DNA of 64,000 nucleotides, taken from NCBI RefSeq assembly GCF_001522545.3, contig NC_031769.1:147941361-148005360 (forward strand), in the 5' to 3' direction. Positions 4,055 to 56,823 of this stretch are shown here, one piece after another. This DNA is from Parus major. Taxonomy: Eukaryota > Chordata > Aves > Passeriformes > Paridae. Under the pieces are notes generated by a model that was not told the origin of the DNA, made no database searches, and saw only the letters and a program-made list of their open reading frames with translations. Position 1 is the first letter of the stretch. Each line of letters begins with the position of its first letter. The translations under genes and the position numbers were made by a program.

Positions 4055-7000
4055 GACTTCTCAACAAAAACATCCTTGTCATTTCCTTCACAACGTTCCT
4101 TGGGATTTCCTTCTCAACAGCCCAGTAAGAAACTAAAGAAATTTATCTGGAATCATCTTTTTCTGAGGACTGAAACTTAGAAGAGTGAGGCTCAAGGTAC
4201 AGAGGAGGGCTACAATTTTATTTTGTTCCCTTGACAAAAAGGTTAAAATTTCCCACAATGTGTGATCTAAATCTAAGTGACAGAATGACCAAGAAAATAC
4301 CATTGGTTGTTCTTTATCCATGGGTTCACTTTGCAGTTTAAGTTGCAGTAACTTTCCACAGCTGCAAGAAGGTTCTGTGAAAGAGGCCTCACATCTTTTC
4401 TGGTGTGAGTAGCTACTGCCTTTCCCCAGCAGCACAGGGCTCACATTTGGCAACTCCTGAGGTGTGGAGGGAGGGAGGAAGGAGAGAGAAAAGCAGCTTC
4501 ATGAATATGTGGAATTATTCTGGGAAGCACTCAGGATAATGTAAAAACGAGAGACATAAAACACTGGCCAGCTAAGACACTAAGAGAGATGAGATAGCAG
4601 ACCTGGCAAGTCATCCATTTGCACCAGTGTGGCAGATCTTGTGGCTTTTTTGGGAACAAGCAGTTATTGGCATTTGACTTTCCTCTTGGATTAAGTACCA
4701 GGAGGAAAAATGCTGACTTACGTTAAAATGTGTCTGGTTGCAGGACACACTCAAGGAGATGGATGTTTAAGCACTGGAGTACACGGCCAAGGCTGCCAAA
4801 GATGCAAATCTCTCCGTGCCCATCCAGTGCCTCGTTACTATTCCACCATCCCTGAGAACCTGCCATGGGGAAATACCAGGCTTCCACCTTGCAGCTGCTT
4901 TTAACTACAGAGCAAGCAAATCACAGCTGTAAAAGTTGACAGAAACCCTTAAATTCTCATTCATGTGTTACTGGAAATAAACCTTAAAAAAGCCCACAGA
5001 AGACACACAAAATGGTTGGCATTAAACTATTCCAGCTAAGGGAGCAGGAGCTGCATGCTCCAGTTCTGCTGAAAGGGAGCTGGAGGAAGAATAACGTGGT
5101 TTGTGTAGAACTGGAGAAAATAAGAGCTGAAAAGGTTCCCTATCAGGAAAGAAAAACACACTTGCATTACAAGAGTTGCTGTCTCACACACTGATGGGGG
5201 TTTTCAGAGCAGCAGCAATGCATATTTAAACACAAGAAGTACCTTCCTCAGATAATTATTTTAAAGACTATTTAACTATGAAGGAAACAAAACTGTTTTT
5301 AGTCAATGAGGACAGAGATGGAATGGACACAACTCTTAACACTGGAAATAGAACTGCAACTTATAATGTTTTCATTAAGAACAGCACTGGAAATAAATTG
5401 CCGCATAGAGAGCTAATTAAAAAAGAACTAATAAATTCTATAGATTTAAATATAATGTTGTTTTTTTTTTTATCCATCTGGGCTCTAGCTGTTGTTAACT
5501 CTGGGTGATGCTGGTTTTACATACATATGTTGGTGTTATCCCTACAGATGGTGCCAGGGCTGAGGCACAGGGTGGAAGGAAGCTTCACACATTTGCTTTG
5601 CTTGCACTCTAGCAGTCAGTACTGGATTAATGCAAACCCTAATCCCATCAGAAAAGAGATATTTTAGTAGACACCAGGGAGACTAATGCAGCTGATCCCT
5701 GCTTATGGCAGGAAAATGCACATATGTCAGGGCTTTCACTCTGATATTTCTAGATAACCTTGATAAATCTGTTGGACACCTCCTCATTTGGGCCTTAGTG
5801 GGTTGTTCATAAATAAGGGTAAAAATAGCTGAGTTGACTTTCCTGTTGATCTCTTCCACCATTCTTCCAGTGTAGGTGGGTGAAATATCCTGCCTGGTGG
5901 ATGTTTATTCCTTTTTCTGCTGCTCCAGATCAGTCAACATGGAATATTATGGATGAGATTATTTTCATTCAAATTCAAATGCACCAGATCAACACAAATC
6001 ACCCTCATTTCTCTTTAGAGAGGAGAGAGGACAGTCTGGTGCATCTTTAACATATCTATTCAATAGCTTAAAAAAATATCTATGCATTAGCCTGAACATC
6101 AAGTGACAAGTTCAGTTTTAGTTATCTAAACTTCAGTGATATTAATCTCATTTTTTTTCTTTTTTTTTTTAAATATCCTAATTCTGAAAAAAAATATTTC
6201 TTTACTACCTTATAATGTTCGCAGGTTTTTATAGTTTGCCTTGTGTATTTTTCTATAAATAAATTTTCAGTGACCAGATAGGTGAGTGTTGCAATCACTA
6301 GTGTCAGAAAGAAACCTTTATTTCTAATGTGCCCTGAAATTTAGAAATTTAGAATTTAGATTGACCTTCCTTCCTTCCTTCCTGCCTTCCTGCCTTCCTG
6401 CCTTCCTGCCTTCCTTCCTGCCTTCCTTCCTGCCTTCCTTCCTGCCTTCCTTCCTGCCTTCCTTCCTGCCTTCCCTCCTGCCTGCCTTCCTCCCTCCCTC
6501 CCTTCCTTCCTGCCTCCCTCCCTCCCTTCCCATTTTTATATGGAATCCGAATTATTTTAATTTTCTTGGGCAGCATTATTGGAAATAAGCATAAGTATCA
6601 ACTCCCATGTTTGATCCTACTGGGACCCGTCTAATGAAAGCTTTATAAATTCTTTAGTTACTGCATGGGTACAACTCCCATCTTGTTTTTCCCCATGATG
6701 TTCTCCATGCACAGAAAAGCAACCCTGTCCTCCAATATCTATGTTCTCCTGCCATCCTCACCAAAAATGAATAAAATAAAACCCACAGGTTGAAGGGAAG
6801 AATAGAAAAATATTTCAAAGCGAGACCTCTGAGTTACTAAGCAAGAAACAATGTCAGAACTCCCTGAGCAGGAAATAATCAGGAACTTGGACAGTGCCTG
6901 AGGGAATGTTTTATGTGCATAATTTGTTATTACTCTTCCTTGAGTGCCTGTTCATTGGCACTGCTGGACACAGTCAAGGGGTGAATTATTATTTTGTGCT

Positions 7001-13682: not shown

Positions 13683-13927
13683 CAATAAAATCAGAATGGT
13701 TGGAAGAGACTTTAAAGATCATCTCATTCCACCTCCTGCCATGGGCAGGGACACCTTCCACCGGCCCAGGGTGCTCCAAGACCTCTCCAACCTGGCCTTG
13801 GACACTTCCAGGGATGGGGCAGCCACAGCTCCTCTGGGCAACCTGTGCCAGGCCTCACCACCCTCATGGTAAAGAAATTTTTCCATAATCTAATCCAAAC
13901 CTACTCCCTCTCAGTTTGAAACCACAT
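13683..13927 (-). mobile_element. CR1 LINE fragment (younger-looking copy)
   Basis: On the plus strand it starts AATAAAATCAGAATGGTTGG and runs through GACACCTTCCACC, CAGGGTGCTCCAAG, ACACTTCCAGGGATGGGGCA and CCTGTGCCAGGCCTCACCAC, so it is a minus-strand CR1. It shares the GGAGCACCCTGG variant with the copies at 50.96 and 56.61 kb. Confidence 0.93.
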
Positions 13928-14027: not shown

Positions 14028-14092
14028 NNNNNNNNNNNNNNNNNNNNNNNNNNNNNNNNNNNNNNNNNNNNNNNNNNNNNNNNNNNNNNNNN
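14028..14092. other. Assembly gap (65 N)
   Basis: The run of N ends exactly where a GGGAT array begins, so the missing sequence is probably more of that array. Confidence 0.99.
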
Positions 14093-14475: not shown

Positions 14476-16427
14476 TGCTGGATGAAGATGTGGTGTGACT
14501 CGTTGGGTTTCCTTAAAGGCTATAAATAAATGCAAACTGTGGGGTGCTTTTCTCTTCTTTTCATAAAACATTTGGAAGGCAGAGAGAACAGACTTTCTAA
14601 TTTTCTGTTTTAACAGTGGCTTGTTATATATGAAGTCATTAGGAACAATTAAGTGATAATGCTGAACATTTTAGTAATGGAATTAGAAACCTGAGAAAGT
14701 ACAGGAAATGCATAATCTATGTAATTTGGGTTCCAATTCCCCCAGTTCTGCCACTGCTGCTGCTCTGTGCAGCTTCATCACAGCAGACTGTGTGCTCTCT
14801 GTGACCTCCACCTTGGCACGGTGAGCAAGACTTTTGAATTCAACTACATTTGTGGGAATAAATAAAAACTCCTTGGATTTTAATATTAAATCCAGTTGGT
14901 AACAGGCTGGATTTGGTTTGTGTTCATAGAAGAAAATCACATTTTTTTCAAAATCACAAAAAAAAGAAAAAATCAAAAAAAAAGAAGAGAACAAAAAACA
15001 TTATTTTCAGCTTGAATAGAATTTTTTTGGAATAACTCATTCAAATTCCCTTTTGACTATTGAGTCAGTAATCTTGTAAAGACAGGAAAAATGTGTCACA
15101 AAATTACTATATTTTTTTTATCCCTATTCTGGTAGCTGCAGGTACTGTGATCACCCTTAGTGAAGCACAGGACAGGGATCTCTGGGTTGTTTTAGTTCTT
15201 TTAGAAGATGCAAAAAAATTCAGCTTTTGATTTCAGCTCTGGAAAAAAAAAAAAAAAAAGAGTTTGGTTTCCTGTGTCTGCAGCACCACTCAGTCCTTCT
15301 GGCACCAAACACCAACCAGCTGCAAAGTTCATTAAAAAACAATATCCTATCATGAATGGTTACATCAACACCCAAGCTGAAGCCAGTCAGCAATGGGACT
15401 TTTTCCTTTTTAATTTTCTTTTTTAAAGAACAGCAAAACAAAAACAACAAAAAAACCAGAAATTTAGTCAGATGAATATTTCATCACCCAGTTTACATCT
15501 CCACTTTGAACCCAAATTGATGTTTCAGCAGGACTACAAGGCATGCAGCCACCTACAGAACTTCCCCAGGCAGAAATCATATGTACTTTTTGAAGTTAAA
15601 CAGAAATAAGACAGTGACAATTTTTTCCGTTTTGTTCCCCTAATTGCCAGACAAAGTGCAATTTTCTGTTCTGTTCTATCAACCAGATGCCTTTGTCATC
15701 CACCATTGTGCTACAGTAATGGAACTTGACGTCCTCTTTGTTGTTTCTCGCTGCATTTGTGTGACTCACTGCTCAAAATAAAAATGTACTAAGAATACCA
15801 AAGGTTGTTGTCATAGAAAAGTTATGAAATTCCTTTCATCTAGTTGCTTTCAGGGTTTCTCTTTGTTTTTTTTTTTCCAGGGCTGGGGCTTTTGAAGTTG
15901 TCTTGATATGCTGTGAGCACCCAGCCATGGGGTTATGTACCAGCCAACACATCAGCTTTCAGCAGAAACCCTGCTAAATGTAACATTTTCCAAGGTACTT
16001 TGTCACCTAAAGCACTGAGTGGAGACTTGAGCAAGCTTCCCAAAGATATGAAAGCTGCAGGATAGCTTTTGAATACTTTACTCAGTTGAAAAACTGTCCA
16101 GAAATTACAAACGACCACAAATGACCCCACAGCACCACAAATCAGCTGAAGTTGTGGTGCTCACCACTCGAGGCATTGGAGCATCACAAAAGGTTAAAAA
16201 TGAAGGAAGGAATTGTGGCATTGGTTCTCGAAGCCAGGACACACAGGTAAGTCCAAGTAGGAGAAATTCCTTTCATTTTTTTAAGAATTAAGAAAGCAAA
16301 TCAGCCATTTCATGACTGCTTTGCAGCTCCACAACAGCAAAATCCTCACATCAACTTTTATTTGTGAGGCCAATCCAAGACTGAGTCAGAAATTTCAATT
16401 GGAAAGATAATGACATTCTAAAAAATA
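14476..16427. other. Unique AT-rich sequence
   Basis: A-runs at 14.95 and 15.24 kb and nothing else recognisable. Confidence 0.65.
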
Positions 16428-16639
16428 ATGGAATGGAATGGAATGGAGTGGAATGGAATGGAATAGAATAGAATAGAATAGAATAGAATAGAATAGAATA
16501 GAATAGAATAGAATAGAATAGAATAGAATAGAATAGAATAGAANAGAATAGAATAGAATAGAATAGAATAGAATAGAATAGAATAGAATAGAATAGAATA
16601 GAATAGAATAGAATAGAATAGAATAGAATAGAATAGAAC
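16428..16639. repeat. Compound (GGAAT)n-(GAATA)n array
   Basis: About seven GAATG-type units, one of them GAGTG, pass into about 35 GAATA units, with a single N at 16,544. The right end runs into a CR1 3'-end remnant. Reverse frames read as Leu-Phe-Tyr-Ser-Ile runs and are not genes. Confidence 0.97.
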
Positions 16640-16683
16640 AGTTCAGTAGGAACCAGCCTACAATGACCATCCAGCCCAAGGGA
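16638..16683 (-). mobile_element. Short CR1 3'-end remnant abutting a microsatellite
   Basis: GTTCAGTAGGAACCAGCCTA followed by CAATGACCATCCAGCCCAAG matches the antisense 3' terminus of a CR1 subfamily. It directly joins the GAATA array. The call is tentative because only about 45 bases remain. Confidence 0.5.
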
Positions 16684-19600
16684 TTTATTTTAAAGTTAAA
16701 ATCATATTTCTTCATTACAAAAAAGTTGATGCACAAAAGTCAAAGCAAGGACAACAAGTACTGAAACAGAACTGAGGGACTGACTCAAGGGAAGAAACAT
16801 TAAAATTGAATGTATTTAATTTTCCTTAATGATTTTGGAATATGCTGAGAATTTGCAACAGTGGCAAATATAAAATTAGAGGTGGCAGGTCAAACATTTA
16901 GAGTCTCAGTCAGAATGAGGTGAAGAGATGGTGAGGATGGAATGACTGGTAAGAGGAAAATATTCTCCCAAACAATAGGAAAATTTGGGAGATTTATTAT
17001 GTAAATAACATACCAATGACATGGTAATGTAGTTAAAAACATGTAAAATAATATTTTACCAACGTTAAATTAAAACTCAGAATTGATCCAGAATGATATA
17101 GAATTATGGAGTAGGAGTAAATTGAAAAGCTTTGTTCCAAATGACTGATAAATCCCACACATAAAGTTAAATCTGTGAAATTCACTGCCCTGTGATGCAT
17201 TTCAGGTTTTAGTAGAGCAGTTCCTAGAGGTGTGGATAAAAATGCTATCAAACTTCATCCCAAAATATTAAAAAAAAAATGAGAGCATATGACACCTTCA
17301 CTGTTAATAGTTTTAAACCCCAACTTTGTGAATTAGTAATTAGTATGAAAGTACAGGTTGGTCAAGGTGAGAGAGGAAATATTTTTATCTTGTACTTAAA
17401 GTAATCTGCATTTTATTCTGAATATCTGCACCAGAATTCAGGGATGCTCCTCCCTTGTGATTCCAGCCTAACTCAAGCCAAGGAGGTGATGGGCTGAAGA
17501 GTAAGAATAGAAGTAAATCAATAAAGTTCTAGAAAGAGGGGAGAGGTGAAAATCCTGAAGTGAGATACATTTTTAACAAAACCAGACAAATTCCTTCACC
17601 ACAACACCTCAGTCAGACAGGAGCCTCTCTCCACAGCACCCCAGCTGCAGTGTGGCAGCACGATGGCCTTACAGACAATTTTCCACCTTCAAGTCTTGTG
17701 AAGTTTGTGTATATTCTTATTTTAAAGGAATTTTTTTTTCTGCATTTTCACCCTTATACCTTACTCTCACAAGATTTGATGCAGGCCTGAATGAGTCAGA
17801 AATTACATAAAATTGATCACAAGCCAGAATGGAAGCCACAGCACAAGGAAAAAACTATAAAATCAACTATTTTAACAGTCAAAGGAGTTTAAAAAGGCAA
17901 AATTCTTAAACCTAGAAACAATCAGCTGCATTTCAACAGAGGCCAGAAGGGCTCTGCCACACTCCAGAATGTCTCATTCCAGGTACAGTGAATTGTTAAT
18001 AAAAATTTGCTTGAGTTAGGGAATGACATACTCAGGCTTTCATGGGAATTTTGCTGTGTTTTAGGTATAAGATGACGAATGTAAAACAGAGTTTATGACT
18101 CCTTACAGGCATTTTGAGCCACAAGGAGCTCAAATGGCTCACCAAGAGCTGTTTGACAATCAGATGGCAGAATCTGCTTTTCATCATGGAAGTGGATAAT
18201 ATAAAACTCAAAATTCTACTGCAGCAGCTGTTGAAGACAGTGACCCCTGTGCTTTAGTACCACTTGTTTTGCATGCATTTATCCTATAATTAGCCAGCAC
18301 AGTGTTCCCACCTTTTGATGCTGAAGTGGCCTACATTTATACATTTATATCAAGCTTTAATTTTTGCTCCCCAAGGATTTATCTCCATTGTCACATGGTT
18401 TATCGTGGATGTTCGATCACTGGTTATCTCTGAGCAGCAGCAAGAATGAATTGGCTTTGTCAAAATCCTGTTTTGTTTTTTTTTTTAACTTCTTTTTCTC
18501 TCCATTTTGCTGACTTTATTTTTTTTTTTATTATTATTATTCTCTTCCTCTCCCAAGTTTGTAATGTGCAAGTGTATCCATTGCTGGAAATAACCTTAGC
18601 TTTAATAGGCTCATTGATGAGGCCATAAGGGGGCACATAACCATTTAAATGAGCTTACCCAGAATGATTCGCTGCCAGAAATGCTTGAAACATCCTGTGC
18701 ATCTCTGCCTCCCTCTCAATGAGGGTCATTCTTTGCTTGCTGATTACCACAGATCACCTCATACAGCGGAGAAAACTCGGTAAACTGATTAAACTTTGCT
18801 CTTTTTTATCCACAGTCCTAAAATATTCCTCAGATGCCTTACTGAGAAATTCTCGTGTAGCCATTTTTCAAACAGGGGACTGATACTGGCAGTGGCACCC
18901 AGAATATTGCTTTTGTCATTCATTTGAAAAACAGATGCAGGGCTGGATTTGCCCATGTTTACTATAACCATAAAGCATGCCTACTTCTAAATTGTTCATA
19001 AATTTAAAATTCTTTAGAAATGTCACCTGCATGATCCAAGCAGTTGCTCCTGTCTTCATCCCACAAGCTCTGGGGAAGTGGAGGCAATGTCAATGCCTCT
19101 TCCATGCTTCCCTTGACTTTTGCTCACAGGGAAACAACCATCCAAAGACTTGTCTGCAAAACTTCTGGGAATGCACATCTGCTGCTAAGATCTGTTGTGG
19201 AGACACTGGCTGTCATCTGGCTCAGCTCTGGATAAAACAGGCCGTAAGCATCAATAATTCAGCATCCAGATGCCACCAATCACTTTTGGCATCTCTGCAC
19301 TTCAGCCTCTCATTCATAAAATTTGATCAAAAAAGGGTGATCCTACATAAAAAGGGTGTTCTTGATATGCAGTCATTAAGTGAGACATGGATGGTCCCAA
19401 AGAAGAGACTAAATTTATGTTTTTGGTTTGAATGGTGTGCAGTAAATTGGACCTGTGACTACAAGGTAAAGATGAGAAGGAGAAATGATTGTTCACTGGC
19501 CACTCACCGTTCTGTGACTAATGTCATGTTCCTTAGAAGAGGGAAGTTTATATCCTACCAGAATATATACAAAAGGGAGATTAAATAAATTATATAAGCA

Positions 19601-20590
19601 ATATTAATCTTTGCTAACAATAAAATAGTTTAATGTTTAAATATTTTACTCCTTTTAAAGTTCTGTATCTTTGCATAAACAGTTTATACTCATTTCACAT
19701 AAAACACACTCCTGCTTTGTTGCTGAATCATGTGATTATTTTTTCTCAAGAGATTAAATTTAAGCTGAATATATGTGGAAAAGTGGTAATCCCCACGTGT
19801 CAAGCATTGTTTCATTTTAAACTACCACCACACAACACTGAAAGCCAAGCACTGAATGTAAAATTCTTCATTCAGACATGACAGTTCTCTTTGTCTTTTT
19901 TTTTAGGTGCTTTGCCACACATTTTTTGGGGACAGCCAATTTAAATCCAAATGCCAAAGAATTCCTCTCCTGTTAGGTTCCAATTAGGATTAGCCCTAGC
20001 TACACAGCTGGCTGTTCCCCTTTTATGAGGCTCGTCTTGCTTTGCAGCCTGACTGCTGAAGGCTCATTGCCTCTCCCTGGGTGTCAGATATAACTCGATG
20101 GGATGTGCCTTTAGGGGGTTCTTACACTCCCTGTTGGAGGAGCCAGTTGCCAGAGGACGTTAGAGATTCCAATATATTCATTTTTGTCAAGGCTGCATTA
20201 AAAATAAACCGATCCCTCTCTTTGTGTGGAGAGGCTGAGGTGCCTTTCACACTCGTGGCAACTTTCTTTCGATGTCTGCAGGAGGCTCCCTGTGATTTCA
20301 ATATCACTGTTCACATTTCATGGGATTTAATTGCTCAGTCCAGGACTCATTATTGGCCTGGTGCTTCCTGTCAGTGCTCAGAGCTCTCCTCCCTGAGCAG
20401 GGACAACAGAAGCGTTGTGCAGTAGCTGCTCACAGTGTCATTGACTGAGAACCAGAGCAAAAGGGGCTTCCTTGCTCTTTTCATAGATTATAATGGTCCA
20501 GGTGTTACTTAAGATTGGTGTCTTTAATCTGTTGCTTAAGACAGATGCTGCCCAGCTGTGGTCTGCAGCTTTCTCACTGATCTCCCCTCT
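16684..20590. other. Long repeat-free unique block
   Basis: Almost 4 kb without a recognisable transposon. It holds the CTCF-like word (18.6 kb), a 203-codon plus-strand open frame at 18,977-19,588 with no known motif, and a CpG-containing stretch at 20.0-20.4 kb that could be conserved non-coding DNA. Confidence 0.55.
18623..18635 (+). promoter_or_regulatory. CTCF-like word CCATAAGGGGGCA
   Basis: The AGGGGGCA core and leading CCA fit the CTCF consensus. The two bases between them do not. It lies in unique sequence. Evidence is limited to the motif. Confidence 0.3.
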
Positions 20591-20867
20591 GTGACAGGAC
20601 CTGAGGGAATGTCCTGAAGTTGTGTCAGGGGAGATTTAGGTTGGATATTAGGAAAATGTCACCCAGAGTGTTGTTGGGCACTGCAGCAGGCTCCCTGTGG
20701 TCACAGCAGAAACCTGGCAGAGCTCAAGAAGTGGGAAGTGTCCGGGGCCAGGCTGGATGGGACTCTGGGCAACCTGATCTGGTGGAAGGTGACCCTGCCC
20801 ATGGCAGGGGTTGGAACTCAATGACCTTTGAGATCTGTTCAACCCCAAACCATTCTGCAGTTCTTTT
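20591..20867 (+). mobile_element. CR1 LINE fragment
   Basis: The landmarks are GTGACAGGACCTGAGGGAAT, GAAGTTGTGTCAGGGGAGAT, TTGGATATTAGGAAAATGTC, CTGATCTGGTGGAAGGTGAC and CATGGCAGGGGTTGGAACTC, ending in ACCATTCTGCAG. The 186-codon open frame across it starts in the CR1 and runs into flanking DNA, so it is not a gene. Confidence 0.9.
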
Positions 20868-21620
20868 ACCCTCTAGAATTGGACCTACCGGCATCTTCAA
20901 GGGATCACTGCTGAGTATCAAGCCAGCAGGGACAGGACCACACAGGCTCTGCTCTCAGACCGTCTCATCCATTACAGCTCTCACAAAAAGAACAGCTCAG
21001 TCCAGGATGAACTGTGAGAAAATGCCTATCAAAGTGAATCCATTACAGCAGAGTTTGGGAGCACAGCAGTCGAGACCCTGCCACCAACGGGAGGCCACAC
21101 CAGCTAACAACAGCCTTCAAAGATGTCTTCACATAAAGAGATGGTTCTTTTATCTGTCTCCTGCCTGGGAAGCAGGTTAGGAGAAGCTTAGCAGCACTTT
21201 TCTCTAAAGATGCTCAACAGGAGCCTTGCTGCAGAGATTGAGATGAAAGTGGTCTCAGCTTCTCAGTGCTGGAAGGTTCAATTTGGTGGCAGACACTTTG
21301 CAGCCTCTCCAAAGCAAATCAGTGGCCTCATCCCCATTCCTGGGAGGCCTTGATGGTTAAAGGTACCAATGATTGTGGCTGTGCTGCTGATACTGTCTGG
21401 AGAGGTGCCAGGGGATAAATTCTTTGTGCCTCTCAAAGGTTTTAGTGACTTTGAGAGACAGCACAAAGTCTTGTATGACCTTAGGTGAGATCTTAATCAC
21501 TCTTGAATTTCTTGAGCTTTGATAACACTTTCTTCCCCACAGATGAAATATGTGCACTTATTTATGTATACCTATATAGCTAATTTCACCCAAACTACAT
21601 AAATTAGCAGTTCAAATTCA

Positions 21621-21742
21621 AATTTTACCACACCATAGCTTTTTCCAGTGGTGGAGCACGGAGCAGATGTCAGACCTGCCTGGTCTCCAGGTCAGGTCCT
21701 GTGACCACGGAAATAAGTGGCAAAATTCGAGTTAATTCACTG
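21621..21742 (+). repeat. Left arm of a 122-bp inverted repeat
   Basis: The arm starts AATTTTACCACACCATAGCT and ends GAGTTAATTCACTG. Its reverse complement matches 23,944-24,065 at 119 of 122 positions, counted base by base, with no indels. It resembles no repeat family I know, and similarity stops sharply at both ends. Confidence 0.95.
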
Positions 21743-22451
21743 AAATGGGGAGGATATTACTGAGCATGTGAAATAAGACACACCATTCATACATTAAACA
21801 GAGATCTCAAACAAATTTTTTCTCTCAACCATGAAAGATGCCTACCTCCCTGTTTTTCATTTTCCCCTCCTTTTCATTTCTCAAACCCCCTCACTTCAGC
21901 ACTTGCTCCGTGCTCATGCAAAGGAGATTGGGGTGACTTTAGGTGCTCCCACTGTGCTCAGGGATGGCTTTTGCAGGCTGTGGAGTCCTCCCATGTGCTG
22001 GGTGAAGGATCCTACCAGAGCTGCCCAGTGAAATCAATCCTGCACCTCCACACCACGGCCTGAAGTATTTGTGGGCACAAATGTAAACCCAAAATATTAA
22101 AGACAAAACTAACTGTTGATTCTTCTTGTTCTATCTCCTCTTCTGATGTATCTTGGCGGAGTTTCTAAAATATTTTAGAATGTAATGCTTAAATTCATTT
22201 AGTATGGCAACTTATATTCTTAACCTCATAGCTCTGCCTCTCATTACAGCTCTCCTGATGTCCCAGCTTAGATCCCTTCCTGCTCTGTCCTGTTTTGAGG
22301 GAAAAGAGGGAAGAGCTGCATAATCTATTCTGCTAAGTGAGTGGACTTTTAAAGCAACAGATGCACAATGAGAGCTAAAGTCTCAAATTTTCATCCTGTT
22401 GTCTGCAGACAGAACCGGGAACAAAACCACTGCAGGATCAATCAAGTCCAT

Positions 22452-22637
22452 GGAATAGAATCACAGGATCACAGAATCATGAAAGCTGGAAAAAGACCTT
22501 TAAGATGATCAGATACAACTGTCAACAGGGCACCATCACCATGACCATTAAGCAACGTCCTCAAGTGCCACATCCATGTTTTTGAGCACTTCCATGGATG
22601 GAGACTCCACCACCAGGTGCTTTGGCTGGTGAACTTC
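22452..22637 (-). mobile_element. CR1 LINE fragment
   Basis: It begins GAATCACAGGATCACAGAAT, the reverse complement of the CR1 terminal repeats, then AAAGACCTTTAAGATGATCA and GGAGACTCCACCACC. It lies inside the interval bounded by the 122-bp inverted repeat. Confidence 0.85.
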
Positions 22638-23943
22638 ACTATATATTGTCTACACAGCCATGGATCTGGGTTTTTTAGATGGCAATTCTTTTCCTATTCA
22701 GTTCTTCTCTGAAGGTCTCACATAAATCTACCTGAAGTTTCAGGCATTAAACACAATCTTGTATTATATTAATTTTTACAGGTAACAGTTTTGTTTTTTT
22801 CTTATCCCTTCCCTTGTGTCACATGGCTGCAGAAGTATGTCCCAAGAGAAAATGCTTGTGCCCTTCTATTGAAGGACAGACATAAACAAGAAGGCAAACC
22901 TAGAAGTTATCACTGGGCTTCAAATAGGTTTTTCCTCTCGATTTGTGGATTAAAAAGAAAAATATAATAAACAGCAAAAAAAAAAAAGAATTGGGTTTTG
23001 TCAAAAAATAAAATCTAAAATTAAAATAAATTAAATAAGCATGAGGATAAAATCTATGCTTAAATATTTTCAAAATAAAATAGAGGGAATTGGAAAGTTG
23101 AACAACTTTATTTCCATTTAAAATTTCAAAGTTAGGAAATAGAAGAAATTAAAAGAAACTGAAACTGAAATATTGGTTGACTTCAAGCCTTAATAATTTT
23201 TGTAGTCGTTTAACAGCTTTTTTTTAAAATTTAGACTTTGTTTTGGCTTGATTATTTTTTTCCCTTTCTTGTTTTTTAGATCTATTTGACATTACAAATG
23301 TCTAGGATTGTCTTAAATGTTGGAATAAAAATGGATACAAATAAAAGGCTATTAAACAATGGGATCAGTAGGATGGGATCCCATAACAGAAGGAAAAATA
23401 ACTTCTCTGATGACCTTGGGTAAATACAGGATTTAAATAATGGAAAAATTCTTCTAGTTGGGTTTTATCACCGTGATGTGGAGATTCCTAACCCACAATT
23501 TCAGCCCTTTAAAACCAGATGCAAACACGATTCCCAGCTATAAACTGAAGTTCAAAAACATGATACAACTCTAGTGGACGTTCTCTGGGGCTCAGTCCTA
23601 CAAACTGACCTGTGAGCGATCCTCAGTTTTAAATTCCCTGCACCACAACAGTTTTTAGCCATAATCTCTATCCCTTATTTCTGTACTCTCTGCAATAGGT
23701 GCACACAGATGTGTTTTTTCCTGTGCCCAAGTGCAGTTCCACAGTTTGACGTGTCAGCTCCAAAGTCATCGGGAATCATTTAAAGAAGTATTTCCTACAG
23801 AATTCCTCTTGACACCTCCCAGGCTACCCCAGATGTCCTACAAAATATATTCACTATATAATTAAAAAATCTGACACGTTTCTTCTGCAGAATCCTGCCT
23901 TAGACATTTCCCTTCTACTTTCATAACTCTGTCTTCTCTTCCC

Positions 23944-24065
23944 CAGTGAATTAACTCAAATTTTGCCACTTATTTCTGTGGTCACAGGACCCGACCTGGA
24001 GACCAGGCAGGTCTGACATCTGCTCCGTGCTCCACCACTGGAAAAAGCTATGGTGTGGTAAAATT
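23944..24065 (-). repeat. Right arm of a 122-bp inverted repeat
   Basis: The arm starts CAGTGAATTAACTC and ends GGTGTGGTAAAATT. It pairs with 21,621-21,742 across a 2.2-kb spacer. The three differences are all CpG versus TpG or CpA. I see no matching target-site duplication next to the outer ends. The spacer holds a CR1 fragment but no transposase-like frame. Confidence 0.95.
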
Positions 24066-25639
24066 AAGGCATTTTTAGGTCTTACCCCAAAATGTTAAAT
24101 GTGTTGTGTTTAATTTCCAGACACCAATGAGAATATTTTTTTGTTTTGTTGTTTTGCTTTTGTTTTAGTTTGTTTGGTCTGGAGTTTTTTGTTGGTTTTA
24201 TTTTGTTCTATTTTTTTACATATGAGATAATCTAGGACAGGTAATGGCAATGAAACCGTGTTTTAACTGTTCCATTGGTAGTCCTCAGCTGGGACATGAA
24301 TTATTTCAGACAGATGTGAGAGTCTCATCTTGTTGCCACAGATATTCCAAACTCTGTTTCCAACCAAGATGAGGCTCAGCTGATGGCAATGATGGTGGCA
24401 TTAGGTGTGGGGAGGGAGATTTTTCAAAGTTACAAAAGCACCTTCTCAGTGTCTCCTTCTCACTGCAAACCAATGAGTTATAACATTTTACACTTGGTTT
24501 GGACCTTTGCAGTCCTCCTTCTTCTCCATTAAAGAAATTATATTCCTGCTGACTCATTCTGTGCAGATCCTTTACCCAAATAAGCATTAAAACTCATAAG
24601 AAATCCACATGGCTACACAAGACCATGTTATTGCATCTGCCAAAATAACTGGAACTCCAGATGATAACTTGAAACCACCAGCATAACTCAAACAGCACTG
24701 AGGTAAATGCACCAGCTTCAGACTGAGAGGGAAAAAAAATGTGAGATCCCTCCTGACCCCCAGCACCTTTTAGGCTGCCATATCCTTCCAGATTTCCATT
24801 GCCTCTGATCCTACCTGAGGTATTTCTGAATTTAAGCAGCTCTGCAGGTAGCACAGCAGCAATAACCAATGATGGAGAGCCACAAAGTTCTGTGAAGAGA
24901 GCACTTGCAAAAGCCATAATCCTGGAGCAATAAAAGAGCTCCCCTGTACCACTTAACAGAGTGAGAATTCATGATTTTAGGTGGTTTTTGTTTTTTTTTT
25001 TCTCTATGCATAAAGAAGATGCACATCCTGTATTGAGCATTCATTGGTTTGCACTCTTCCCCCAGTTCCTAAAGAGTGTGCTTAAAGTGAGAAAGATATT
25101 GCATGAGTGGAGTGCTGGCATTTTTCCCAGCAAGGATCTGAGCACTGGCACTTTTCCTGAGCTAAAAGGGACATTTCTATTTTGTCCCTTTCTGTTTTAC
25201 TCGAACAAGGATAAAAAAAATAAAAAATGTGCAGCAATAAAAGGAATCAAGAAACCAACCAATCCTGCAGTTAATTCTGCTTCCACATCCTGCTATTTCA
25301 CTCCAACACATGCTGCAGTGTCCAAGCCACTCTCATTTTCCTGGATGTCTCTGCATAACAAACCTCTGTGCTGTATTCCAGGTGGTGCCTGTGGAGAGCA
25401 GCTCTTCCCAGGCCTGGATCTGAGCAAGCAGCTCCACTATCAAAAGGTTTTTCATGAGAATCATCCCATATCTGTGATCAGCATCATTGCTTTCCTCTAC
25501 ATTTTGTTCCGTGTCTCTATAACTTCCAGAGGCAGAGCAATTAGTCTGGCATGCAGCTTCTGTATCATTGCATCCTGTGAATTTTTACAGACCAGCTTAA
25601 TGATGTTTTCTGGTTTGTTCTCAAACAGTTTTCAAATAA

Positions 25640-38893: not shown

Positions 38894-39152
38894 CTTTCTC
38901 TTCTTCTCTTCTTCTCTTCTTCTCTTCTTCTCTTCTTCTTCTCTTCTTCTGTTCCTCTCTTCCTCTCTTCTTCTCCTCTTCCTCTTTTCCTCTCCTCTCC
39001 TCTCCTCTCCTCTCCTCTCCTCTCCTCTCCTCTCCTCGAGTCTCCTCGAGTCTCCTCGAGTCTCCTCGAGTCTCCTCGAGTCTCCTCTCCTCTCCTCGAG
39101 TCTCCTCTCCTCGAGTCTCCTCTCCTCGAGTCTCCTCTCCTCTCCTCGATTT
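38894..39152. repeat. Long polypyrimidine tract with regularly spaced CTCGAG sites
   Basis: TTCTC/TTCTTC units (38.89-38.95 kb) grade into CTCTTC and then pure TCTCC units (to about 39,034). The tract then becomes TCTCC-TCGAG decamers and their 15-20-bp variants. CTCGAG occurs at 39,035, 39,045, 39,055, 39,065, 39,075, 39,095, 39,110 and 39,125, with a decayed CTCGAT at 39,145. The open frames across it (Ser/Leu and Glu/Arg runs) are artefacts. Confidence 0.97.
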
Positions 39153-41172
39153 TCCAAAGGATATTTACCCAGATCTGTGCAAAGCCATCATAAAGGAGCA
39201 GGCAGCTCCCAAAGCTGGTTCATCATCTGAGATAATATTAAAAGAGAGGCAGGACTGCTCAGCCTGTATTTATAGGAACAATTTTGGCTGTCTAAAGGAG
39301 GGTTCAGAGAGCTCACTGAGGCTGAAAATCTAACTTTTAGATGGACAAGTTCAAGATGATGAATCTTGACTTTCTCTGCTTGACTTTGGTCTGCCTTTCC
39401 TTAGGAATCCTTACAGCTGGTTCACATGGGGATTTTTTTTTATTATTATTATTTTGCATTAAATGAGGTATAAGAAAGAAAATTCAATGGTAAATATTAA
39501 CACCTTGCTCATGCAGGGGTCACAATCAATATTTGACCCAAACACAGGAGTGAAATTATCAGCAGAGGTTGCGTTTACACCTGAAATGCCTTAGATGGTT
39601 AAAAATACACTGTAGTGAAAAATAATGAAACACTACTAAACCCAAACACAATTATCAGCATGAAGACAAATGACCTACTGCAACCCAGTGCAATCAATTC
39701 CCCAGCAGCCCCAATAGGTGGGACCAGTGTGCTTTAAATACACACAGCAGAGTTCCTGGTATCTACCCAGAAATGAGCAGATCAAATTAATCCCCAAAGC
39801 ACTTCTGCTGAAATCGCCAGATTTATGCCACAGATATTTTCCCTTCATTTATCTAAACATATACTTTGAAAAGAGTGTGGTGCAAATAAAATCTCTTTGA
39901 GATTGAATGGTGAGAGCTTGGGAGGAACTGACACAATTGTGCTTCTCTAACAGCCTCCAGCAAGTGACTTAATCTCTTTATATCTCAGTTTTGCTGCCTT
40001 TAAAACAAGAATATTGAAAGTTCTGCCCCTCAGAGGGGTGCTCAGAGTGTAAGCTGAGACCTGCTGGATGAAAGGAATGCAGGGCTTTTATTTATATGTG
40101 TAACAGCATCTTCAGTTCAGCACAAAGGTTTAGTCCATTATTAAAGGAATGTGAGGCAAACAACACTGTTCAGCACTAAGTGCTTCAATTTCTATTCATT
40201 CTAACGAAAAGAGTACCTGGATTCTCATTGACTTCCAGAACTGACAGCCTGTGTTCACTTAATGCCAGCCTCCGCAGTACCCTCTTATAAATCCATTTTT
40301 AATTTATTATTTTTTGCACTTGGCTACATGCAATTCTGCTGCCTCTTGCTCGAGAATCAAACCCTTGGTCTCAGCCCTTGCAAAACCTGATAGTGCATTT
40401 CTCATTATGTCCACAGTAATTTCAATTATTTTCTTTTGTCTAAGACTTCTGTTACGCTTTGGTGCCTGTAGACATTTTAAGTAACTACCTTTTTTATTAG
40501 CTGACTCAACACATGACAGATTATTCTGTCCAGCTCTTCTCCTTAGGTCCTTTTATCAGCCTAAGTCCTTATACGACCTCTCTTAATGTTCCTGTATTAT
40601 CTGTGAGGGTGGAAGCACTCAGTGAACTTGACATAAAAACACACCTTTGGGTCAGAGATTTACACCCACTTTTAGAAGAACTGACCCAAACGACCCAAAT
40701 AATTGAAACAATTGGTCCAAACACCTCTGTTAAAATCTGGCAAAGAGAAATGAACACAAAAATGGGCTGTTTTCCCATGGAAAGAGACATGTCGAAATCA
40801 AGATTTAAGCTGGGATTGTCACTTTTCCATCCAGTTCCTTATCAGTCATCAGATCGGTCCTTCAGTGCAAAGAATGAAAATAAAATATAGGTTTTGTGCA
40901 TTCTGGAACCTAACTGCTTGATTGTTTCTTGGGCTTTTCTTCTGCAAAAGGAGAAAGGCTGAAGTCCCACAGCTGGAGCTGTTTTTCTTGCACAAGTATT
41001 TTCACTTTTGTCAATGTCTGTCTCTCCCTCTGGTCCCCAACAACATCAGAACAGTCAAATATTTAAAATCTGTGCTGCCTGAAGGTTTTTCTGTGGTAGA
41101 ACTGACATTCTCAGGCAGAACACACTGCTTTCTTTTGATCCAAGGGTCTTCCGAGGGGTGGATGCCTCAAGC

Positions 41173-41196: not shown

Positions 41197-41437
41197 NNNN
41201 NNNNNNNNNNNNNNNNNNNNNNNNNNNNNNNNNNNNNNNNNNNNNNNNNNNNNNNNNNNNNNNNNNNNNNNNNNNNNNNNNNNNNNNNNNNNNNNNNNNN
41301 NNNNNNNNNNNNNNNNNNNNNNNNNNNNNNNNNNNNNNNNNNNNNNNNNNNNNNNNNNNNNNNNNNNNNNNNNNNNNNNNNNNNNNNNNNNNNNNNNNNN
41401 NNNNNNNNNNNNNNNNNNNNNNNNNNNNNNNNNNNNN
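41197..41437. other. Assembly gap (241 N)
   Basis: A run of N directly after ATTCC units. The 206-codon open frame spanning it is meaningless. Confidence 0.99.
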
Positions 41438-50959: not shown

Positions 50960-51176
50960 TATTGAGATATTAGAAAGAAAATCTTTACTGTGAGGGTGGT
51001 GAGGCCCTGGCACAGGTTGCCCAGAGAAGCTGTGGCTGCCCCATCCCTGGAAGTGTCCAAGGCCAGGTTGGATGAGACTTGGAGCACCCTGGGGTAGTGG
51101 AAGGTGTCCCTGCCCATGGCAGGAGGTTGGAACTGGATGATCTTTAAGGTTCCATCAAAATACAGACCATTCTATG
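50960..51176 (+). mobile_element. CR1 LINE fragment (younger-looking copy)
   Basis: It reads GAGGGTGGTGAGGCCCTGGC, ACAGGTTGCCCAGAGAAGCT, CTTGGAGCACCCTGGGGTAG and GGAAGGTGTCCCTGCCCATG, and ends in ACCATTCTATG. It is nearly identical over long stretches to the copy at 56,612. Confidence 0.93.
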
Positions 51177-56611: not shown

Positions 56612-56823
56612 CTCACAGAAATTATTGTGATGGTGGTGAGGCCCTGGCACATGTTGCCCAGATAATCTGTGGCTGCCCCATCCCTGGAAGTGTCCAAGGC
56701 CAGGTTGGATGGGGCTTGGAGCACCCTGGGGTAGTGGAAGGTGTCCCTGCCCATGGCAGGGTGTGGAAGGAGATGATCTTTAAGGTCTCTTCCAAATTAA
56801 ACATTCTGTGATTTTCTGATTCT
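56612..56823 (+). mobile_element. CR1 LINE fragment (younger-looking copy)
   Basis: It carries the same core words as the 50.96 kb copy, including CTTGGAGCACCCTGGGGTAG and GGAAGGTGTCCCTGCCCATG, and ends AACATTCTGTGATTTTCTGA. It lies in the inferred TSNARE1 intron, antisense to the gene. Confidence 0.93.

What the first reader, a model, noticed from the sequence alone, without database searches (positions are those of the whole stretch)
21621..24065. Near-identical 122-bp inverted repeat, 2.2 kb apart, whose only differences are CpG decay
Arms 21,621-21,742 and 23,944-24,065 are reverse complements at 119 of 122 positions with no indels. All three mismatches are CpG versus TpG or CpA. Two CpGs survive only in the left arm and one only in the right, as if methylated-CpG mutation were the sole change since copying. 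Everything around the arms is unrelated and the ends are abrupt. Possible explanations are terminal inverted repeats of a non-autonomous DNA transposon, two insertions of an undescribed short repeat, or arms homogenised by gene conversion. The spacer has no transposase-like frame and I see no target-site duplication.
Basis: seen in the sequence. Interest (0 to 1): 0.75.

Follow-up and report, generated by a model that had tools for sequence, protein, structure and literature searches.

The report
Local inverted duplication, two copies only
A 122-base stretch of DNA, apparently from a bird, is found at just two places in its genome, 2.2 kb apart and in opposite directions; it looks like a scar of DNA copying or repair rather than a mobile element.

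Summary
The spacer's only full-length match is itself; its other 39 scored matches are a ~160-bp dispersed fragment. A repeat or transposon family is not supported. No Rfam family passes, the 99-codon spacer frame has no Pfam match, and the 4-bp repeat around the left arm is chance-like. Most likely this is one local rearrangement a few million years ago: a template-switch type templated insertion, or a 2.2-kb microinversion whose staggered breaks duplicated 122 bp. Orthologous DNA, not held here, would separate them; 0-2 bp of junction microhomology is weak support for the first. CpG-only differences have P 0.046-0.135 at CpG rate ratios 8-15. One oddity: one end lies at the foot of an 11-bp stem (post hoc). 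Ordinary; low interest.

The parts
21621..21742 (+). left arm of the inverted duplication, 122 bp; CpG at arm positions 39, 88 and 108
   Evidence: one of two matching places in the genome
23944..24065 (-). right arm, reverse complement of the left arm at 119/122; CpG at arm positions 39 and 73
21743..23943 (.). 2201-bp spacer; only full-length genome match is itself; the one stop-to-stop frame of 90 codons or more has 99 codons and no Pfam match
22455..22615 (.). dispersed repeat fragment inside the spacer (the name CR1-like is recalled from the look of the sequence, no library hit)
   Evidence: 39 further scored genome matches at 73-79%, all within query 713-873 (40 of 376 candidates scored); also in the regional sample
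21621..21727 (+). 107-bp hairpin-forming part of the left arm: an 11-bp stem, 10 of 11 paired, closes exactly at the outer end of the arm

Best explanation
A local, non-recurrent duplicative rearrangement in the germline: one 122-bp segment was copied once, in inverted orientation, to a site about 2.2 kb away. The most likely route is a replication or break-repair template switch (microhomology-mediated break-induced replication or polymerase-theta end joining): a 3' end at a break or stalled fork annealed to the opposite strand of nearby DNA, copied about 120 bases, then rejoined. Afterwards the two copies drifted apart, losing CpGs. Shown: two matching places only, inverted, abrupt ends, spacer not repeated as a unit, no significant target-site duplication. 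Inferred: that it was a copying event, the enzymes, which arm is the copy, and the age (most likely 2.5-6.1 My under assumed rates). No function of the pair is implied.
For: Two matches in 1.02 Gb, both here; spacer not repeated as a unit; flanks of both arms without a match in the 354-kb sample (dust on, E 0.01); arms end abruptly. One end coincides with the foot of an 11-bp stem (0.14% of 8000 random starts, post hoc); that hairpins can stall a fork is general knowledge. Published human germline work reports template switching and signatures of theta-mediated joining at meiotic breaks, with an excess of structural variants of sizes within the ~2-kb resection range (PMC7615360, section 10 read; applying that range to the distance seen here is my inference), and inverted templated insertions as germline variants (PMC8421209, passages).
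Against: Junction microhomology is 2 and 0 bp if the left arm is the insert, 0 and 0 if the right is. In PMC7615360, non-tandem-repeat deletions and duplications under 2 kb showed microhomology in 84% and 94% of events, medians 10 and 15 bp, so the junctions here fit that class poorly. Template switches found in apes have a median copied length of 12 nt and a maximum of 128 (PMC7954356, passages), so 122 would be at the top; that method and MMBSearch, which looks within 100 bp, are short-range by design, so they cannot say how common a 2.2-kb jump is. No orthologous locus was available: neither an empty site nor the polarity was shown.
Confidence: 0.54

Rival explanations
1. A 2.2-kb microinversion: staggered breaks at one end left 122-nt overhangs that were filled in, so that the same 122 bp now flank the inverted segment in opposite orientations. 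The spacer would be inverted relative to the ancestor.
For: The arms sit exactly at both ends of a segment that is not repeated, the arrangement described for staggered-break inversions in Drosophila (PMC5080602, passages). Joining after fill-in needs no microhomology, which suits the 0-2 bp seen.
Against: Nothing here shows that the spacer is inverted; no repeat (354-kb sample) and no frame of 90 codons or more spans a breakpoint, so there was nothing to read the orientation from. The Drosophila cases are chromosomal inversions, not 2-kb ones.
Confidence: 0.27
2. An old inverted repeat whose arms are kept alike by gene conversion.
For: 98% identity without gaps; nematode inverted repeats with arms more alike within than between species have been explained by conversion or selection (PMC1803023, passages).
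Against: The differences are compatible with one simple age, so conversion is not needed. The arms are short and 2.2 kb apart.
Confidence: 0.09
3. Terminal inverted repeats of a non-autonomous DNA transposon, or two insertions of a short interspersed repeat.
For: Inverted, discrete ends; the arm carries an 11-bp imperfect inverted repeat spanning 107 bp; AAAT is repeated around the left arm.
Against: Two matches in the genome; spacer not repeated; a match of 4 bp or more arises in 24% of 2000 random trials, and none of 3 bp or more was found around the right arm; the shared sequence runs 15 bp past the 107-bp hairpin unit; no Rfam match at gathering score, no Pfam match in the 99-codon spacer frame.
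Confidence: 0.05
4. Assembly artefact.
For: Reads were not available.
Against: The arms differ at three positions and have four unrelated flanks; no N run lies within 21-25 kb.
Confidence: 0.04

Closest known systems
Inverted templated insertions / short-range template switching (MMBIR, polymerase theta end joining)
   Same: An inverted copy of nearby DNA, abrupt ends, no target-site duplication
   Different: The catalogues that I saw are short-range by design: copied length median 12, maximum 128 nt, template within 100 bp; here 122 bp at 2.2 kb, with 0-2 bp of microhomology
Staggered-break inversions (Drosophila)
   Same: Inverted duplications at both ends of a segment
   Different: Here 2.2 kb instead of a chromosomal inversion, and inversion of the spacer is not shown
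Long-maintained inverted repeats (Caenorhabditis)
   Same: Near-identical arms around a spacer
   Different: There tied to gene pairs and kept across species; neither was shown here
MITEs and other non-autonomous DNA transposons
   Same: Inverted repeats around a spacer without a long frame
   Different: No family found: one pair in the genome

Membership tests
Local inverted templated duplication | Two copies near each other, in opposite orientation, otherwise single-copy | tested here: met
Local inverted templated duplication | One arm absent from the ancestral locus (empty site) | not testable with these tools
   no relative of this genome is held (stated)
Local inverted templated duplication | Microhomology at the junctions | tested here: inconclusive
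   2/0 bp or 0/0 bp by direction; low against the medians of 10 and 15 bp in PMC7615360
Staggered-break microinversion | Inverted duplication at both ends of the segment | tested here: met
Staggered-break microinversion | Spacer inverted relative to relatives | not testable with these tools
   no orthologous DNA
Non-autonomous DNA transposon (MITE) | Multiple copies with the same ends | tested here: not met
   2 matches in 1.02 Gb, both this pair; spacer only itself. The tool warns that it skips very common words; a laxer search did not complete
Non-autonomous DNA transposon (MITE) | Target-site duplication outside the terminal repeats | tested here: not met
   by eye: CAAATTCA before the left arm and AAGGCA after the right arm share one base at most; not scanned by script, since looked around each arm alone
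Short interspersed repeat | Many dispersed copies; duplications around each copy | tested here: not met
   AAAT around the left arm, 4 bp or more in 24% of 2000 random trials, nothing of 3 bp or more around the right arm
Known structured RNA | Rfam match at gathering score | tested here: not met
   0 matches in the window
Conversion-maintained inverted repeat | Arms more alike within a species than between species | not testable with these tools
   no orthologous DNA

The most novel reading that the evidence does not exclude
The copied segment is set by its own hairpin: the foot of an 11-bp stem marks exactly where copying began or stopped, so this is a fossil of a hairpin-directed template switch acting over 2 kb, well beyond the 100-bp reach of the catalogue that I saw; if the locus is transcribed, the two arms would also pair into a 122-bp double-stranded RNA open to editing.
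Probability: 0.08. Interest if true: 0.4.

Novelty: new member of a known kind. Interest (0 to 1): 0.17.

Why it matters
Little by itself. It is a clean example of a local inverted duplication that can be dated roughly, and an outgroup comparison of one locus would say whether it arose by templated insertion or by microinversion. It also shows that a near-perfect inverted repeat with CpG-only differences need not be a transposon.

Tried and rejected
Transposon or short-repeat family: rejected on copy number. Structured RNA gene: no Rfam match at gathering score; the permissive scan of 21000-24700 gave three weak hits, none overlapping an arm; no tRNA. Arm folding: z from -1.6 to -3.1 on the four strands; conservation not tested. 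Protein coding: no stop-to-stop frame of 90 codons or more overlaps an arm; the 99-codon spacer frame and two frames outside the pair have no Pfam match at E 0.1. Target-site duplications: AAAT around the left arm, 4 bp or more in 24% of 2000 random trials; none around the right. Viral contigs: no exact match to a 26-base core of the arm (the tool says that records of this or a very near genome may be left out). The hairpin-foot coincidence was looked for after the fold was seen, so it is post hoc.

Not done: whole-genome searches for diverged copies of the right arm and for the two outer flanks (not answered, see below); orthologous loci; reads; methylation or expression data.

The age uses assumed rates of 1.5, 2.2 and 3.3e-9 per site and year and CpG ratios of 8 and 12 (the rates are from memory). 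A zebra finch pedigree study gives 5.0e-9 per generation and speaks of a generation time of about 2-3 years (PMC12047795, passages), which falls within that range.

Full report
Observation. The inverted repeat exists exactly as described: arms 21621-21742 and 23944-24065, 122 nt, 2201 nt apart, 119 of 122 complementary, no gaps, with mismatches at arm positions 74, 89 and 108, each CpG in one arm and CpA or TpG in the other. One further CpG (arm 39-40) is kept in both. The 60 bp beyond either end show no alignment. The arms are richer in G+C (48%) than the spacer (38%) and have 3 and 2 CpGs, observed/expected 0.42 and 0.29, against 0.18 in the spacer and 0.11 in the window; the counts are too small to lean on.

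Copy number. The left arm, searched in the window's own genome (G000, 1,020,301,622 bases, 1669 contigs; the window is C2:147941361-148005360), gives two matches of two candidates, the two arms themselves. The tool warns that it skips very common words and scores only the best candidates; both of the two candidates were scored. The spacer gives one full-length match, itself, and 39 further scored matches at 73-79%, all inside query 713-873 (40 of 376 candidates scored); I recognise this fragment from memory as CR1-like. A search with the right arm at a lax threshold, and searches with the outer flanks, did not complete (listed under Tried and rejected).

Regional sample. In 354 kb of the same genome (264 kb including the window, 3 x 30 kb elsewhere, about 4 kb N) the flanks of the arms have no match besides the arms themselves; the nearest repeats are at about 20575-20875 and inside the spacer. 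Of 112 pairs within 20 kb and at least 40 bp long, this pair alone passed 85% identity and low repeat depth. The 111 others were dropped by those filters without being printed; pairs of dispersed repeats, such as the 95% pair 50985-51123 / 56622-56760, are meant to fall there. The sample was drawn around the pair, so it gives no unbiased rate.

The contig lengths (C1 114,059,860; C2 150,265,477; C3 111,636,321; C4 68,030,631) are, from memory, those of the great tit (Parus major) assembly; no call confirms it.

Not a transposon, repeat or gene, as far as tested. No family of copies. Where a transposon bounded by the arms would have a direct repeat, the flanks share one base at most, by eye. 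Around the left arm alone AAAT is repeated, which 24% of 2000 random trials match or exceed; around the right arm nothing of 3 bp or more was found. Rfam has no match at gathering score in the window, ARAGORN no tRNA. No frame of 90 codons or more overlaps an arm, and the one in the spacer has 99 codons, stop to stop, without a Pfam match at E 0.1. A 26-base core has no exact match in the viral contigs.

CpG pattern and age. If the ancestor had four CpGs, three of three differences at CpGs has P = 0.018 at a CpG rate ratio of 5, 0.046 at 8, 0.070 at 10, 0.135 at 15 and 0.199 at 20: mildly unusual at most. With rates of 1.5-3.3e-9 per site and year and ratios of 8 and 12, the most likely age is 2.5-6.1 My, with support from 0.6 to 16.3 My over all settings. 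The zebra finch pedigree rate, 5.0e-9 per generation with a generation time of about 2-3 years (PMC12047795, passages), lies within that range.

Mechanism. If the left arm is the insert, junction microhomology is 2 and 0 bp; if the right is, 0 and 0. This does not settle direction, and it is low: among human hotspot deletions and duplications under 2 kb outside tandem repeats, microhomology was seen in 84% and 94%, with medians of 10 and 15 bp (PMC7615360, section 10 read). The same section reports template switching and signatures of theta-mediated joining, and an excess of structural variants in the size range of resection (~2 kb); taking that range as a possible reach for the jump here is my inference. 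Birds differ from humans in how breaks are placed: in zebra finch, recombination is enriched near CpG islands, as in mammals without PRDM9 (PMC12047795, passages). Inverted templated insertions occur as human germline variants (PMC8421209, passages), found by a program that looks within 100 bp of the template. Template switches in apes have a median copied length of 12 and a maximum of 128 nt (PMC7954356, passages), also from a short-range method. A microinversion with staggered breaks gives the same picture at its two ends (PMC5080602, passages) and needs no microhomology; only the spacer's orientation in a relative would tell. Conversion between arms is one published reading of nematode inverted repeats (PMC1803023, passages) and is not needed here.

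A possible detail. The outer end of the left arm is also the foot of an 11-bp stem, 10 of 11 paired, that closes a 107-bp hairpin. 0.14% of 8000 random starts have such a partner in the same distance range; allowing 2 bp either way, 0.2% of 2500; and 2.7% of 150 random 122-bp segments hold one anywhere. The test was made after the fold was seen. The other end lies 15 bp beyond the hairpin, so the hairpin unit was not by itself the thing inserted; it may have stalled a polymerase. This is inference.

Literature. Eight full-text searches were used to find mechanisms. They were not searches for this locus, and I make no claim that it is unpublished. The songbird CNV paper PMC6389189 was looked at in passages: it holds 'template switching' once and 'microhomology' and 'inverted' not at all, and was not used further.

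Verdict. A real, ordinary scar of a local rearrangement; the best guess is a templated inverted insertion (0.54), the main rival a microinversion (0.27). Interest 0.17.

Noticed in passing
window 16379-16693: Tandem array whose copies fall in register every 10 bp, probably a 5-bp unit, with a single N at 16544.
   Followed up: no
window 38951-39165: Tandem TCTCC array in which some units read TCGAG, giving interspersed CTCGAG sites.
   Followed up: no
window 6365-6540: Pyrimidine-rich tandem array of CCTT and CCTG units.
   Followed up: no
window 14028-14092 and 41197-41437: Runs of N; on one side of each, the translated frames read as short tandem repeats, so these may be gaps or masked stretches inside tandem arrays.
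   Followed up: no
window 50985-51123 and 56622-56760: Two copies of a dispersed repeat, 139 nt and 95% alike, 5.6 kb apart in direct orientation, with a 91% inverted partner at 13700-13852.
   Followed up: no
window 21621-21742 and 23944-24065: The arms have a higher CpG observed/expected ratio (0.42, 0.29) than the spacer (0.18) or the window (0.11), on 3 and 2 CpGs.
   Followed up: no
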